Source of the DNA: Hevea brasiliensis
Taxonomy: Eukaryota > Streptophyta > Magnoliopsida > Malpighiales > Euphorbiaceae
Length of the DNA: 64,000 nucleotides
Assembly (NCBI RefSeq): GCF_030052815.1
Contig: NC_079501.1
Coordinates: 96,798,190-96,862,189 of the forward strand
Reading direction: 5' to 3'
This document shows positions 3,401 through 46,383 of the stretch, piece by piece; the stretch's first letter is position 1; each line of letters starts with the position of its first letter. Below the pieces are notes generated by a model. That model made no database searches, was not told where the DNA came from, and saw only the letters and a program-made list of their open reading frames with translations. Both the position numbers and the translations under genes were made by a program.

Positions 3401-4036
3401 AGAGTTGCACCAAATAGATGTAAAAACAACCTTTCGAAATGGAAAACTTGAAAAAAAAGTTTATGTGGACCAACCTAAAGGTTTAAAAAGGTCATATGGT
3501 GTGTAAACTTAAGAAATCAATATATAGACTAAAGTAATCTTTCCACCAGCGGTATATTAAGTTCAATGATACTATAAAGTCTTTTTATTTAAAGAAAAAG
3601 TCATTGATTGATGTATATATCTTCATATCAGTGAGAGTATGCTTATTTTCTTAATTCTGTATGTTGATGATATCTTACTTAGTGCAAATTATTTGGGTAT
3701 ATTACGTGAGACTAAAGATTTTTTTTCTCAAAGAATTTCGAAATAAAAGATATAAAAGAGGCATCCTTTGTGATTGAAATAGAAATTTTCTATGATAGAT
3801 CACAAAAACTGTTAGGATTGTTTTAGAAAGTATTAATAGAATTCTAGAGAGATTTAACATGCATAAATGTTTAGCAGGAATTGTTCCCATATAGAAAAGG
3901 GACAAATTTAGTGTCAATCAATGTGCAAAGAGATGTGAAACGTAAAGAAATAGAATCAATTCCTTATGCTTTAGTTATGGGCAATTTAATTTATGCTCAA
4001 GCCTGTACGATTCCTTATCCTAAAATTGATCACTAG
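450..4036 (+). pseudogene. Ty1/copia gag-pol pseudogene, 5' part (gag, integrase, reverse transcriptase)
   Basis: Order and residues are those of a Ty1/copia polyprotein, broken by many stops and frameshifts. Near 450-540 a frame reads WCEQVRFHLGIMDLDLALL, the usual start of copia gag. At 640-990 the gag repeat domain follows (KEYLKLV, YDGSKSMQEHI, FILNSLSPE, FQINYN). At about 1660-1740 the pre-integrase motif LWHKHLGHISNKRLEKLI appears, then integrase remnants to about 2720. Reverse transcriptase begins near 3100 (SDKWLNAVKDEL, KVWDF) and keeps the catalytic block YVDDILL at 3660-3680. The frame is interrupted at 4042 by TRIMs and resumes at 6151. The element is dead as a coding unit. Assignment to the copia superfamily is firm; the lineage is not assigned. 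Confidence 0.9.
1907..2450 (+). repeat. Tandem duplication inside copia integrase region
   Basis: Two diverged direct copies of about 270 bp (about 1907-2177 and 2178-2450) share long stretches, such as the block coding for DRGG followed by GKHNELGQ. Normal copia integrase has this segment once, so this is an internal duplication within the dead element. Confidence 0.75.
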
Positions 4037-4041
4037 AAAGC

Positions 4042-4281
4042 TGTAACGATTGGGCTCAAACCACTAGAGGAATTGTCCGCTTTGACCATAAACCTCACGG
4101 TTTTGTCCCATAGGTGGAATGGAGAACTTTCCAGGAGGTCACCCATCCTAGGATTTCTCTCAAGCGAGCACGTTTAACCCTGGAGTTCTTCCAACTCTCT
4201 AGGCCATTCCACCAAAAGGCGCCTCTTGTGATTAGTTCCTCTATTTTATATATCATTACTTTTTGAATCCAAGACCATCTC
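4042..4281 (-). mobile_element. TRIM family B LTR, outer part (continues at 5310-5344)
   Basis: Starts TGTAACGATTGG and matches the uninterrupted B LTR at 5433-5708. The remaining 35 bp lie at 5310-5344, beyond a nested family A insertion that duplicated ATCTC (4277-4281 and 5305-5309). Together the parts give about 275 bp. On the - strand it carries the box ATCCCACATCG at 5320-5330 and TATATAAA at 4245-4252. Confidence 0.88.
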
Positions 4282-5304
4282 TGTAACACCCTAGGCAAAT
4301 CCCACATCGACAAAACACGGGAGATATGCTGGGTGTAACGGCCCGACCCACTAGTGATATTGTCCGCTCTGAACCGAAGCCCTCACGGTTTTAAAACGCG
4401 TCACTAGGGGTTATGAACCACCAACTTATAAACCCAGCATCTCTCCCGTGTTTTGCCGATGTGGGATTTGCCTAGGGTGTTACAATCCACCCCCCTTATG
4501 GGACTCAGTGTCCTCGCTGAGGTTTGCCCCACCATCGTTCAAGGTTGCACGCGGAGCGGCTCTGATACCACAAATGTAATGGCCCGGCCCACTAGTGATA
4601 TTGTCCGCTCTGGGCTGAAGCCCTCACGGTTTTATAACGCGTCAATAGGGGTTACGAATCGCCAACTTATAAACCCAAAGATCTCCCGTGTTTTGTCGAT
4701 GTGGGATTTGCCTAGGGTGTTACAATCCACCCCCCTTATGGGACTCAGCGTCCTCGCTGAGGTTTGCCCCACCATCATTCAAGGTTGCACGCGGAGCGGC
4801 TCTGATACCACAAATGTAACGGCCCGACCCACTAGTGATATTGTCTGCTCTGAACCGAAGCCCTCACGGTTTTAAAATGCGTCACTAGGGGTTACGAACC
4901 ACCAACTTATAAACCCAGCATCTCTCCCGTGTTTTGCCGATGTGGGATTTGCCTAGGGTGTTACACTGGGTTTATAAGTTGGTGGTTCGTAACCCCTATT
5001 GACGCGTTTTAAAACCGTGAGGGCTTCGGCCCAGAGCGGACAATATCACTAGTGGGCCGGGCCGTTACATTTATGGTATCAGAGCTCGCGCAACCTTGAA
5101 CGATGGTGGGGCAAACCTTAGCGAGGACGCTGAGTCCCATAAGGGGGGTGGATTGTAACACCCTAGGCAAATCCCACATCGACAAAACACGGGAGAGATG
5201 CTGGGTTCATAAGTTGATAGTTCGTAACCCCTATTGACGCGTTTTAAAACCGTGAGGGCTTCAGCCCAGAGCGGACAATATCACTAGTGGGTCGGGCCGT
5301 TACA
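4282..5304 (+). mobile_element. TRIM family A element (+), nested in B LTR, itself interrupted by an A trimer
   Basis: Flanked by perfect 5-bp repeats ATCTC. The 5' LTR is split into 4282-4333 and 4971-5069; the internal region is 5070-5153 with the primer site TGGTATCAGAGC starting at about 5074 and the purine tract AAGGGGGGTGG at about 5141-5151; the 3' LTR is 5154-5304 (151 bp). The split in the 5' LTR is the insertion of a family A trimer in the opposite orientation at 4334-4965. Confidence 0.92.
4334..4965 (-). mobile_element. TRIM family A three-LTR concatemer (-), flanked by CTGGG
   Basis: Three LTRs (4334-4484, 4575-4724, 4815-4965; 151, 150 and 151 bp) alternate with two 90-bp internal segments (4485-4574, 4725-4814). 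The whole 632-bp unit is flanked by perfect CTGGG repeats (4329-4333, 4966-4970), so it entered as one piece or expanded in place after insertion. It lies in the LTR of a sister element of the same family. Confidence 0.93.
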
Positions 5305-5344
5305 ATCTCCGTGCTTTGCCGATGTGGGATTTGCCTAAGGGACC

Positions 5345-5432
5345 TTTCTCCCCCCCTTTCGGGACTCAGCGTCCTCGCTGAGGTTTGCCCCACCATCGCT
5401 CAAGAGGACACGCGAGCGGCTCTGATACCAAT
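5345..5432 (-). mobile_element. TRIM family B internal region
   Basis: An 88-bp non-coding segment between two B LTRs. On the - strand it has the initiator tRNA-Met primer site (from 5430 downward) two bases from the LTR, and a polypurine tract (from about 5361 to 5346). Its middle, around the GACGCTGAGTCC block, is shared with family A. Confidence 0.85.
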
Positions 5433-5708
5433 TGTAACGATTGGGCTCCAACCACTAGAGGAATTGTCCGCTTTGGCCATAAGCCTCACGGTTTTGTCCC
5501 ATAGGTGGAATGGAGAACTTCCCAGGAGGTCACCCATCCTAGGATTTCTCTCAAGCGAGCACGTTTAACCCTGGAGTTCTTCCAACTCTCCAGGCCATTC
5601 CACCAAAAGGCGCCTCTTGTGATTAGTTCCCCTATTTTATATATCATTACTTTTTGAATCCAAGACCATCTCCGTGCTTTGCCAATTTGGGATTTGCCTA
5701 AGAGACCT
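5433..5708 (-). mobile_element. TRIM family B LTR, uninterrupted copy
   Basis: Matches the outer B LTR over about 275 bp and serves as the empty-site reference for the nested A insertion. Its inner end runs directly into a shortened hybrid internal segment (5709-5758) that resembles family A, lacks the polypurine tract, and leads into an A LTR at 5759. Confidence 0.85.
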
Positions 5709-5758
5709 AGCCCCACCATCGCTCAAGGTTGCACGCGGAGCGGCTCTGATACCACAAA

Positions 5759-6150
5759 TGTAATGGCCCGGCCCACTAGTGATATTGTCTGCTCTGGGCT
5801 GAAGCCCTCACGGTTTTAAAACGCGTCAATAGGGGTTACGAACCACCAACTTATAAACCCAGCATCTCTCCCGTGTTTTATCGATGTGGGATTTGCCTAG
5901 GGTGTTACAATCCACCCCCCTTATGGGACTCAGCGTCCTCGCTGAGATTTGCCCCACCATCGTTCAAGGTTGCACGCGGAGCAGTTCTGATACTACAAAT
6001 GTAACGGCTCGGCCCACTAGTGATATTATCCGCTCTAGGCTGGAGCCCTCACGGTTTTAAAACGCGTCACTAGGGGTTACGAACCATCAACTTTTAAACC
6101 CAGCATCTCTCCTGTGTTTTGCCGATGTGGGATTTGCCTAGGGTGTTACA
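5759..6150 (-). mobile_element. TRIM family A two-LTR unit forming the right end of the composite
   Basis: LTRs at 5759-5909 and 6000-6150 (151 bp each) flank a 90-bp internal region (5910-5999). The outer LTR abuts the AAAGC target duplication. The two ends of the composite are therefore LTRs of different families (B on the left, A on the right). Confidence 0.9.
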
Positions 6151-6720
6151 AAAGCTGCAAAGAAAGTTTTATGGTACCTATAATGAATTAAAGATTTCAT
6201 GCTCACTTATAGGAGATTTAATCATTTAGAAGTGGTTGGATGCCCATATTCAGATTTTGCTGGATATGTTGACAGTAAAAATCTATTTTAGTTACCTATT
6301 CCTATTAGATGAAGGAACAATATTATCAAAAAATGCCAAATATAGTCTGTCATTGCTTCATTCATTATGAAAGGAGAATTTGTAGCATGTTTGAAGTTAT
6401 AATTCAGGCATTATGGTTGTAAAATTTTATCTTAGGACTTGAGGTAGTCAACATCATTAGTAAGCTGCTGATAATTTAATGAAATAATTCCATAGCAGTA
6501 TCTTCTCCATGAACAACAAATATGCCAAAGGTACCAAGCATATGGAATTAAAGTATTTTGTCGTTAAAGAAGGAAGTTCAGAAACGAAGAATGTCTATTG
6601 AGCATAATAATATTGATCTCATGATAGTAAATCCGTTAATTAAGGGTTCACAACCTAAGACATTTAAAGAACATTTTCTTAGAATGGGTCTTGGTTGTAG
6701 TAACATATAATGTATTGACT
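6151..6720 (+). pseudogene. Ty1/copia pol pseudogene, 3' part (RNase H)
   Basis: Continuation of the copia polyprotein after the TRIM block. Frames read KAAKKVLWYL at 6155, SDFAGYVDSK near 6255, MKGEFVAC near 6367, KHMELKYFVVKE near 6537, MSIEHNNIDLMIVNPL near 6590 and PKTFKEHFLRMGL near 6655. These are the conserved RNase H and C-terminal motifs of copia pol, again with scattered stops. Confidence 0.88.
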
Positions 6721-22600: not shown

Positions 22601-23930
22601 TTCACAAAGTTCAAACCCAACAATATATACACATAAATACTTCTAATTATCACACATACTTCCATCATCAAATTACATACCTGTCACTACTATTCCACAC
22701 ACATAGGCTGCCATTTTTTTTGTACAATACTTCAATAACATTTCATGAATTTGAACATGATCAATTTCCATTATGAGGCTGCCAAACATCCTTACATATC
22801 AACTTCCATTTTTACTTTTCAAGCTCACCATTCAAACTTTATACATGGGAATCAACTTCAATACATATAAGCACTTAATTTAACATCCCAAACTACCATT
22901 TACATGTAAAAATAAGCTATACATGATGAAGTTCCATGGCTGCTGAAATGCTCCATCACCAATAATTCATCAAACCTCAAAACTTCTTCCATAAATCAAA
23001 TAACCACAACATCAACTCAAAGTTTAACAAAGAAAGGATGAAGAAATGAACATGTACCTCAAGTGGAGCTTGTCAAAACTCCTTCAAATCTCTCCCTTCT
23101 TGCTCCCAAACTACTGCCCAAGGTGTATACTATAACTTTAATGAAGAACTCTTAAGGAAATTGTGGCGAAATCATGGATGCATGGAGCTTGGTTAAGCTT
23201 TGGCCATAGAGTCCCATGGAGGATGAATTCGGCTGTCTTGGAAATGAGAGGTTGAAGATGAAATTTCAGCCCACATTTGTGATATTTTAATGTCCACTAA
23301 CTTAACTTAGTGGAGCACTAAGTTTGGTTAATGATTTAATAATCCAAAGTTTCCAATTTTGCAATTTTGTCACCATTCTTCCACTATTTATATTATGTAC
23401 CACAATTTAATTTTTGTATGACATTTTCAAAGTTTAATATCATTTATTTTTAATGGACATTTAGGTCAAAAAACAACTCAGGATGTCAATTTACCAAAAT
23501 GCCCCTATTCGGATTGTATTCCCAATTTTTCGGTAACACCAGTTTTTGTCGGTTTCTCGATTTCTCGTTTTTCCTTGTACTAATTAATTAAATTTTTTTT
23601 TTATATTTCTAATGACATTTATACTTCAATAAGTCTTTAATTATGTCTTGAAACTAAATTTCGAGGGTTCTCTGCAATCCTGGGGTCGGCTATTGCCTGC
23701 GCCGTAACTTCCCCGTGCGGTCACCCATCGCTACGGTTTTCGGCTCGTTTAACTTGGTTACATTTCATTGCTATTATTTTTCTTTTGTTTTTCTTGTATT
23801 TTCCTTTCTTTTATTTCATTATTTTATGTCTCCTCACTAACATTTAAATGTAGTTCTAGGCATCCTAGCTGTCCGGACAGACACTGGTCACCAGAACAGT
23901 AGAACACACTACCGAACATAGGTGTGTTAC

Positions 23931-24718
23931 TGTAATGGCCCGGCCCACTAGTGATATTGTCCGCTCTGGACCGAAGCCCTCATGGTTTTAGAACGCGTCA
24001 ATAGGGGTTACGAACCACCAACTTATAAACCCAGCATCTCTCCCGTGTTTTGTCGATGTGGGATTTGCCTAGGGTGTTACAATCCACGTCAATAGGGGTT
24101 ATGAACCACCAACTTATAAACCCAGCATCTCTCCCGTGTTTTGTCGATGTGGGATTTGCCTAGGGTGTTACAATCCACCCCCCTTATGGGACTCAGCGTC
24201 CTCGCTGAGGTTTGCCCCACCATCGTTCAAGGTTGCACGCGGAGCGGCTCTGATACCAAATTGTAATAGCCTGATCCTTCTCCAGTTAGTATTGTCCGCT
24301 TTGGCCCATGGGCCTCACGGATTTGTCCCTTGGGAGGTTTCATTCCCAAAAGCGTGCTGACCAGGTGAGGAAGGCTCCCACATATATGGCCCAAATCTTT
24401 TCTTCCCGTTTCCGATGTGGGACACGAAGTTTTCACCCCAGTGCGTAGCTGGTTGAACAAGCACGTCCCAACCCCATCCCTGGGTCGTGACAAGCCCACC
24501 AGCTTCCGCCTGGTGCGTCCTCGCACCACACACCATACTAGAGGGAACCAGGCTCTGATACCACAAATGTAACGGCCCGGCCCACTAGTGATATTGTCCG
24601 CTCTGGACCGAAGCCCTCACGGTTTTAGAACGCGTCAATAGGGGTTACAAACCACCAACTTATAAACCCAGCATCTCTCCCGTGTTTTGTCGATGTGGGA
24701 TTTGCCTAGGGTGTTACA
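23931..24718 (-). mobile_element. Composite TRIM of families A and C, flanked by GTTAC
   Basis: Flanked by GTTAC (23926-23930, 24719-24723). From left to right: A LTR (23931-24081, 151 bp), a partial A LTR (24088-24172, 85 bp), A internal region (24173-24261), a third TRIM family C LTR starting TGTAATAGCC at 24262 and ending near 24435, a C internal region with its own tRNA-Met primer site complement (about 24550-24563), and an A LTR (24568-24718, 151 bp). Family C is unlike A except at both LTR ends and at the ATCG box. It lies near the end of the solo LTR at 20396. Confidence 0.9.
24381..24423 (-). promoter_or_regulatory. USE-like box and TATA box in TRIM family C LTR
   Basis: On the - strand GTCCCACATCG (24413-24423) is followed after exactly 24 bp by CATATATG (24381-24388). 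This is the layout of plant U6-type snRNA promoters. Function is inferred only. Confidence 0.5.
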
Positions 24719-45992: not shown

Positions 45993-46383
45993 TGTAACAC
46001 TCTAGGTAAATCCCACATCGACAAAACACGGGAGAGATGCTGGGTTTATAAGTTGATGGTTCGTAACCCCTATTGACGCGTTTTAAAACCATGAGGGCTT
46101 CGGCCTAGAGCGAACAATATCACTAGTGGGCCGGGCCATTACATTTGTGGTATCAGAGTCGCTCCGCTTGCAACCTTGAACGATGGTGGGCAAACCTCAG
46201 CGAGGACGTTGAGTCCCATAAGGGGGGTGGATTGTAACACCCTAGGCAAATCCCATATCAACAAAACACGAGAGAGATGCTAGGTTTATAAGTTGGTGGT
46301 TCGTAACCCCTATTGACGCGTTTTAAAACCGTGAGGGCTTCGGCCCAGAGCGGACAATATTACTAGTGGGTCGGGCCATTACA
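45993..46383 (+). mobile_element. TRIM family A, complete two-LTR copy with TAAAT duplication
   Basis: The cleanest TRIM in the window. LTRs are 45993-46143 and 46233-46383 (151 bp each). The 89-bp internal region has the primer site TGGTATCAGAG at 46148-46158 and the polypurine tract AAGGGGGGTGG at 46220-46230. Flanking repeats TAAAT (45988-45992, 46384-46388) are perfect. Sister repeat units near 36410, 54635 and 60610 show the empty site. It has no coding capacity, so it must use proteins of another element. Confidence 0.96.
46010..46052 (+). promoter_or_regulatory. USE-like box and TATA box in TRIM family A LTR
   Basis: ATCCCACATCG (46010-46020) matches the upstream sequence element of plant snRNA genes. 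TTTATAAG (46045-46052) follows after 24 bp, the spacing of U6-type Pol III promoters. A T4 run at 46081-46084 would stop Pol III almost at once. Activity is inferred. Confidence 0.5.

What the first reader, a model, noticed from the sequence alone, without database searches (positions are those of the whole stretch)
4042..6150. Inter-family TRIM concatemer (B-B-A-A) with different LTRs at its two ends but one target duplication
A single AAAGC duplication brackets a unit whose left end is a B LTR and right end an A LTR. The junction lies in the short internal region that A and B share. This could be integration of a chimeric cDNA made by template switching between co-packaged RNAs, or later recombination between a B and an A element. 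A recombination that left the outer end exactly at the target repeat seems less simple.
Basis: partly seen in the sequence, partly recalled or inferred. Interest (0 to 1): 0.85.

Follow-up and report, generated by a model that had tools for sequence, protein, structure and literature searches.

The report
Hybrid mini-retrotransposon inserted as one unit
Two kinds of tiny plant retrotransposon, one carrying a 5S-RNA-like promoter (Cassandra) and a relative without it, appear to have been joined end to end before inserting into the genome as a single piece, and similar mixed pieces occur elsewhere in the same genome.

Summary
4042-6150 (outer elements on the - strand) is a mixed tandem TRIM array bracketed by one exact AAAGC duplication. 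One outer end is an A LTR (U3 end), the other a B LTR (U5 end). B is Cassandra: its LTR holds a 5S-rRNA-like stretch. A fits a published 5S-less "Cassandra-like" TRIM. The A side of the joint ends 49 nt into the A internal; the B side starts within about 4 nt of the B LTR start. So it is not an exchange inside shared homology.

The exact joint was found only here and on a redundant contig, but the class recurs. Of 38 fetched A arrays, 22 have an exact TSD (permuted flanks: mean 0.6, max 4 in 1000 shuffles); 3 of those 22 have ends from two families (A and C), and 7 are inverted with same-family ends.

Best reading: cDNAs of related TRIMs were joined before integration, and integrase used one competent LTR end from each. 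Template switching as such is not shown. A second A-A-B-B locus (L052) lacks a TSD, which counts against generality.

The parts
4037..4041 (.). left copy of target duplication AAAGC of the outer composite
4042..4281 (-). Cassandra (B) 3' LTR, U5 side; ends at the TSD; interrupted after 4281 by nested elements
   Evidence: 97% identical to the B LTR at 5433-5708
4113..4212 (-). 5S rRNA-like stretch in the left B LTR
   Evidence: RF00001, 21.8 bits (gathering 38), model 1-120
4282..5304 (+). nested A TRIM (386 bp without its own nest), TSD ATCTC 4277-4281 / 5305-5309
4334..4965 (-). second nested layer: A array LTR-int-LTR-int-LTR, TSD CTGGG 4329-4333 / 4966-4970; outer LTRs 3 differences, middle LTR 14-15 from them
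5305..5345 (-). rest of the left B LTR (U3 side); 5305-5309 is the second ATCTC copy
5346..5432 (-). B internal region with PBS and G-run PPT
5433..5708 (-). Cassandra (B) 5' LTR, lacking about 2-4 nt at its U3 start
   Evidence: start of other B copies
5504..5603 (-). 5S rRNA-like stretch in the right B LTR
   Evidence: RF00001, 23.6 bits (gathering 38), model 1-120
5706..5711 (.). B-A joint: B LTR start joined to nt 49 of the A internal
   Evidence: 44-nt probe found only at this locus and contig C23 in the 1.88 Gb genome
5710..5758 (-). first 49 nt of an A internal region (PBS side)
5759..5909 (-). A LTR (inner)
   Evidence: 12 of 151 differences from the outer A LTR
5910..5999 (-). A internal region
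6000..6150 (-). A LTR (outer); its U3 start (TGTAACACCC in sense) abuts the TSD
6151..6155 (.). right copy of target duplication AAAGC

Best explanation
The outer unit is one integration of a DNA made before integration from a Cassandra (B) cDNA and an array cDNA of its 5S-less relative A. Shown: one exact TSD; outer ends from two families; the same frame across the site when the unit and one AAAGC are removed; a joint found only at this locus (and its redundant contig), placed at the B LTR start and 49 nt into an A internal; the same class (ends from two families, one exact TSD) at three other loci. Inferred: the U3 end of a nearly complete B cDNA was joined to a broken or unfinished A array, by end joining or by reverse transcriptase running off one molecule onto another; integrase then inserted the product using the A U3 end and the B U5 end. 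A, B and C share their PBS, and their LTR edges are alike, so use of the same enzymes is plausible but untested.
For: TSD and ends. Frame across the site. Joint at the B LTR start. Joint not found elsewhere. Ends from two families with exact TSD: L012, L013, L016, 3 of 38. Inverted arrays with same-family ends and exact TSD: 7 of 38, which ordinary first- and second-strand transfer does not give. A LTR joined to another B LTR start in L052. In direct all-A arrays the outer LTR pair was strictly the closest in 8 of 9 three-LTR arrays, 8 of 15 in all with 3.7 expected, so arrays may pass through reverse transcription as units.
Against: L052 has the same A-A-B-B order but no 5-bp TSD, so such an order can also arise without one clean insertion, or lose its TSD. 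In the 6 direct A arrays with more than three LTRs the outer pair was the closest in none. The copia reading of the flanks rests on frame and on a motif recalled from memory. The two A LTRs of the unit differ more (12/151) than the two B LTRs (9/275), p=0.058; this fits different A templates, but separate ages are not excluded. The C23 copy is colinear over 10 kb, so it is no independent replicate. 16 of the 38 A arrays have no exact zero-offset TSD. No reads or other accessions were available.
Confidence: 0.68

Rival explanations
1. Two successive insertions: B at AAAGC, then an A array using the adjoining copy of AAAGC as its own target, then a deletion removing the B edge, the middle AAAGC, one A LTR and part of an A internal.
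For: The joint looks like a deletion; A elements have inserted into A and B LTRs in this very locus.
Against: Needs an insertion at exactly the same 5 bp and a deletion ending within about 4 nt of the B LTR start. Three other loci with ends from two families and exact TSDs would each need a similar coincidence.
Confidence: 0.13
2. Post-integration recombination or gene conversion between a resident B and a nearby or ectopic A element.
For: Usual explanation of complexes without TSDs (PMC1950507); L052 shows the same order without a TSD.
Against: Recombination of neighbours should give different flanking 5-mers and lose flank; here the 5-mers match and the frame is continuous. The A-type sequence runs to the last base before the TSD, so a conversion tract would have to stop exactly there.
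Confidence: 0.1
3. Integrase-independent, Rad52/SSA-type insertion of an incoming cDNA into a resident element at PBS, PPT or LTR (described for Tf1 in PMC12786077, section 16 read).
For: Explains A-C-A at 23931-24718 with both joints at the PBS, and A arrays with alike outer and unlike middle LTRs.
Against: It leaves both outer ends of the resident in place, so it does not give one A end and one B end at locus 1.
Confidence: 0.05
4. Assembly artefact.
For: TRIM arrays are hard to assemble.
Against: The same structure, with its flanks, is on a second contig, C23, and the nests carry their own TSDs.
Confidence: 0.04

Closest known systems
Tandemly arrayed TRIMs (TA-TRIMs), Gao et al. 2016, PMC4717578 (search passages and section 8 read)
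   Same: Three or more LTRs with shared internals inside one TSD; also an array of two inverted TRIMs with one TSD (Fig. 2 legend, C).
   Different: The section read names arrays by subfamily and mentions no mixed ones; here the two ends belong to different families.
Template-switching complexes, Sabot and Schulman 2007, PMC1950507 (whole text read)
   Same: Complex element with one flanking TSD, read as one integration.
   Different: Their criterion of highly similar outer LTRs fails at locus 1. It holds for the nested array 4334-4965 and for A-C-A at 23931-24718 (3 of 151 differences each).
Long tandem arrays of Cassandra, Kalendar et al. 2020, PMC7215508 (search passages read)
   Same: Cassandra arrays, ascribed to recombination and/or template switching.
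   Different: The passages read report no differences between repeat units and no partner of another family.
Cassandra and 5S-less Cassandra-like TRIMs, PMC10853983 (passages and section 21 read)
   Same: B carries 5S-like sequence in its LTR; A lacks it, has a TATA-like stretch at nt 54 of its LTR (48 nt in the paper) and an internal like B's.
   Different: In the passages read the paper reports coexistence in two Asteraceae species, not joined elements. The species of this window is not known to me.
Recombination between Onsen copies during transposition bursts, PMC5668417 (abstract and outline read)
   Same: Chimeras made in the replication cycle before integration.
   Different: Within one family.
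Tandem LTR-retrotransposons in rice, PMC11899658 (passages read)
   Same: Tandem arrays ascribed to single insertions with one TSD.
   Different: The passages read describe arrays of alike units.

Membership tests
TRIM (A) | Short element, two short LTRs, PBS and PPT, no coding, 5-bp TSD | tested here: met
   Element 45993-46383, 391 bp with 151-bp LTRs, TSD TAAAT; PBS TGGTATCAGAGC by eye; no ORF scan was run
Cassandra (B) | 5S rRNA-derived stretch in the LTR | tested here: met
   RF00001 full-length matches, 21.8 and 23.6 bits, below gathering 38; 24.8-27.6 bits in other B loci
Cassandra (B) | Transcription by RNA polymerase III | not testable with these tools
   no expression data
Cassandra-like TRIM (A) | Internal region shared with Cassandra, no 5S in the LTR, TATA about 48 nt from the LTR start | tested here: met
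   A vs B internal and adjoining LTR edge 80.5% over 123 nt, E 5.5e-26; no 5S hit in the A parts of 3900-6300; TTATA at nt 54
Tandemly arrayed TRIM | At least three LTRs and two internals within one TSD | tested here: met
   four LTRs, TSD AAAGC
Sabot-Schulman template-switching complex | Flanking TSD | tested here: met
Sabot-Schulman template-switching complex | Highly similar outermost LTRs | tested here: not met
   outer LTRs are A and B; not filed here
Post-insertion recombinant complex | No matching TSD; loss of intervening flank | tested here: not met
   AAAGC on both sides and continuous frame

The most novel reading that the evidence does not exclude
In this genome TRIM cDNAs of at least three related families are joined in any order and polarity before integration, and integrase then pairs whatever two competent LTR ends lie outermost, even from different families. 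The Cassandra lineage here may depend on this: its U3 end starts (T)AAAGG instead of TG, and 0 of 11 intact same-strand Cassandra loci had an exact 5-bp TSD at their ends, whereas 4 of 5 composites that cover that end with another competent end have one (locus 1, L014, L053, L069; L052 does not).
Probability: 0.35. Interest if true: 0.78.

Novelty: new variant of a known kind. Interest (0 to 1): 0.62.

Why it matters
Mixed ends inside one target duplication separate two questions that like-ended tandem arrays leave open: whether arrays form before or after integration, and whether integrase needs both ends from one element. They also put Cassandra and its 5S-less relative physically in one insertion, including a hybrid A/B LTR in L014. 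That is a route by which the 5S promoter module could be gained or lost, a question left open in PMC10853983.

Tried and rejected
A switch inside shared A/B homology (first reading from one B-like base) was rejected: that base is polymorphic in A, 36 of 163. Contig C23 as an independent copy was rejected: colinear over 10 kb, 96.4%. A tRNA upstream of B in L066 (my first guess, note) was rejected: ARAGORN found none in 15 of 15 loci given, out of 20 fetched; Rfam gave U6atac. External relatives for the probes used: none in viral contigs, phages or genome contigs. Sequence strings in papers: 0 papers. That foreign LTRs upstream of Cassandra copies share one TSD with them could not be shown from two loci.

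Full report
What is there. All coordinates are window +; the outer elements lie on the - strand. The unit 4042-6150 is flanked by AAAGC on both sides. In + order it reads B LTR, B internal, B LTR, 49 nt of A internal, A LTR, A internal, A LTR. The left B LTR is interrupted by an A element on the + strand (4282-5304, TSD ATCTC), itself interrupted by a three-LTR A array on the - strand (4334-4965, TSD CTGGG). Without the nests the outer unit is 1081 bp.

Identities. B is Cassandra: the Rfam 5S model matches over its whole length at 4113-4212 and 5504-5603, below the gathering score. A has 151-bp LTRs without 5S; its internal and LTR edge align to B at 80.5% over 123 nt; TTATA lies at nt 54. This fits the Cassandra-like TRIMs of PMC10853983. 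A third family, C, shares PBS and LTR-edge motifs.

One insertion. Removing the unit and one AAAGC leaves one frame, with stops, reading ...IDH*KAAKKVLWYL**IKDFMLTYRRFNHLEVVG.... I take this as Ty1/copia RNase H from memory; no database call confirmed it. The neighbour-recombination model predicts unmatched TSDs and lost flank, and neither is seen.

The joint. The A internal stops at nt 49 and B begins at TAGGTCTC; free Cassandra copies begin at (T)AAAGGTCCC, so B lacks about 2-4 nt. No PPT is left at the joint. The base that suggested a switch in shared sequence is polymorphic in A (36 of 163). A 44-nt joint probe with up to 3 mismatches matched 2 places, this locus and contig C23, with 0 control matches. 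C23 is colinear with the window over 10 kb at 96.4% and in the unit carries many homopolymer-type indels, so I treat it as a redundant copy.

Genome-wide class. One search scored 40 of 6776 candidates and found 338 matches, of which part is listed; the listed ones fall into 40 clusters: the window, C23 and 38 others, all 38 fetched. Parsed: 22 of 38 have an exact zero-offset TSD (permuted flanks mean 0.6, max 4 in 1000 shuffles). By ends, the 22 are 12 direct and 7 inverted with same-family ends, and 2 direct and 1 inverted with ends from two families. Those three are L013 (GGATA) and L016 (AAATG), with C and A ends in direct order, and L012 (TTAGA), A and C, inverted with both ends U5. Real units of a second family occur in 6 of 38 (L012, L013, L014, L016, L037, L041); a seventh listed, L034, has only a 19-nt PBS match and I do not count it. 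L041 has no exact TSD. L014 (AGAAA) holds Cassandra and a hybrid LTR: A to about nt 127-129 joined to B from nt 19.

Two kinds of joint. In locus 2 (23931-24718, GTTAC), L013, L016 and L037 the A-C change lies at the PBS, as expected from plus-strand transfer onto a foreign cDNA or from annealing of PBS ends. Locus 1, L012, L014, L041 and L052 have irregular joints. In 15 direct all-A arrays the outer LTR pair differed by 5.3 on average against 10.7 for other pairs and was strictly the closest in 8 (3.7 expected): 8 of 9 with three LTRs, 0 of 6 with more. Some arrays thus seem to pass through reverse transcription as units.

Cassandra copies. One search scored 40 of 2351 candidates; I fetched 20 places. 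L052 has A-int-A-TTTGT joined to B-int-B, the same order as locus 1 with a different joint, and no 5-bp TSD; this counts against a single clean mechanism for all. L063 has B units followed by C. In 11 loci with intact same-strand B only, none had an exact 5-bp TSD at the ends (the nearest chance match was 7 nt off, L066); the other 9 of 20 were composites, truncated or cut. L053 and L069, with a U5 end on both sides, have exact TSDs (AAAGG, AGATC). In nine loci the B U3 start lies a few nt after what looks like a foreign LTR end. In L050, L053 and L066 it lies at or near U6 or U6atac sequence (97.6, 65.5, 79.7 bits).

Verdict. What is new relative to the papers read is ends from two families in one TSD, with Cassandra as one partner, as part of a recurrent class. 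Searches for earlier reports; none of the titles, abstract starts or passages seen describes ends from two families in one TSD. Maiwald et al. 2021 and Yin et al. 2014, both on Cassandra recombination by their titles, and Yang et al. 2023 (alt-EJ of retrotransposon DNA, by title) are not held, so priority is uncertain.

Noticed in passing
23931-24718: A-C-A composite, TSD GTTAC; outer A LTRs differ at 3 of 151, middle LTR from a third family C; both family changes at the PBS; the A LTR at the 23931 side also has a partial 91-nt duplication.
   Followed up: partly
L050 (G000:C9:53655300), L053 (C9:71233800), L066 (C6:78122700): Cassandra U3 start joined to or close to U6 (97.6 and 65.5 bits) or U6atac (79.7 bits) sequence; in L053 a U6 fragment ending at the U6 3' end lies between an inverted B piece and B, inside one TSD AAAGG.
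   Followed up: partly
L051, L054, L056, L058, L059, L061, L062, L064, L068: Cassandra U3 start sits a few nt after LTR-like ends (..GNGTNACA) of what look like several repeat families, without an exact 5-bp TSD in the 7 of these with intact ends; L051 and L058 share about 87% identical upstream DNA. Unexplained.
   Followed up: partly
L010, L011, L028, L029, L030, L032: Inverted A arrays with U3 ends on both sides and one TSD (exact in five; in L011 2 nt off because its start is mutated); in L010 and L011 a U5 end is joined near nt 54-61 of an inverted LTR, possibly a one-ended strand transfer between cDNAs.
   Followed up: partly
A, B and C LTRs: All carry RTCCCACATCG near the U3 start followed by a TATA-like stretch, which recalls the plant snRNA promoter element USE (recalled, from no call).
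   Followed up: no
23690-23770: Another 5S-like stretch on the - strand (GATGGGTGACC..GGGAAGTT), local score 36 against the B 5S part, 0 of 500 shuffles as high; no Rfam match.
   Followed up: partly
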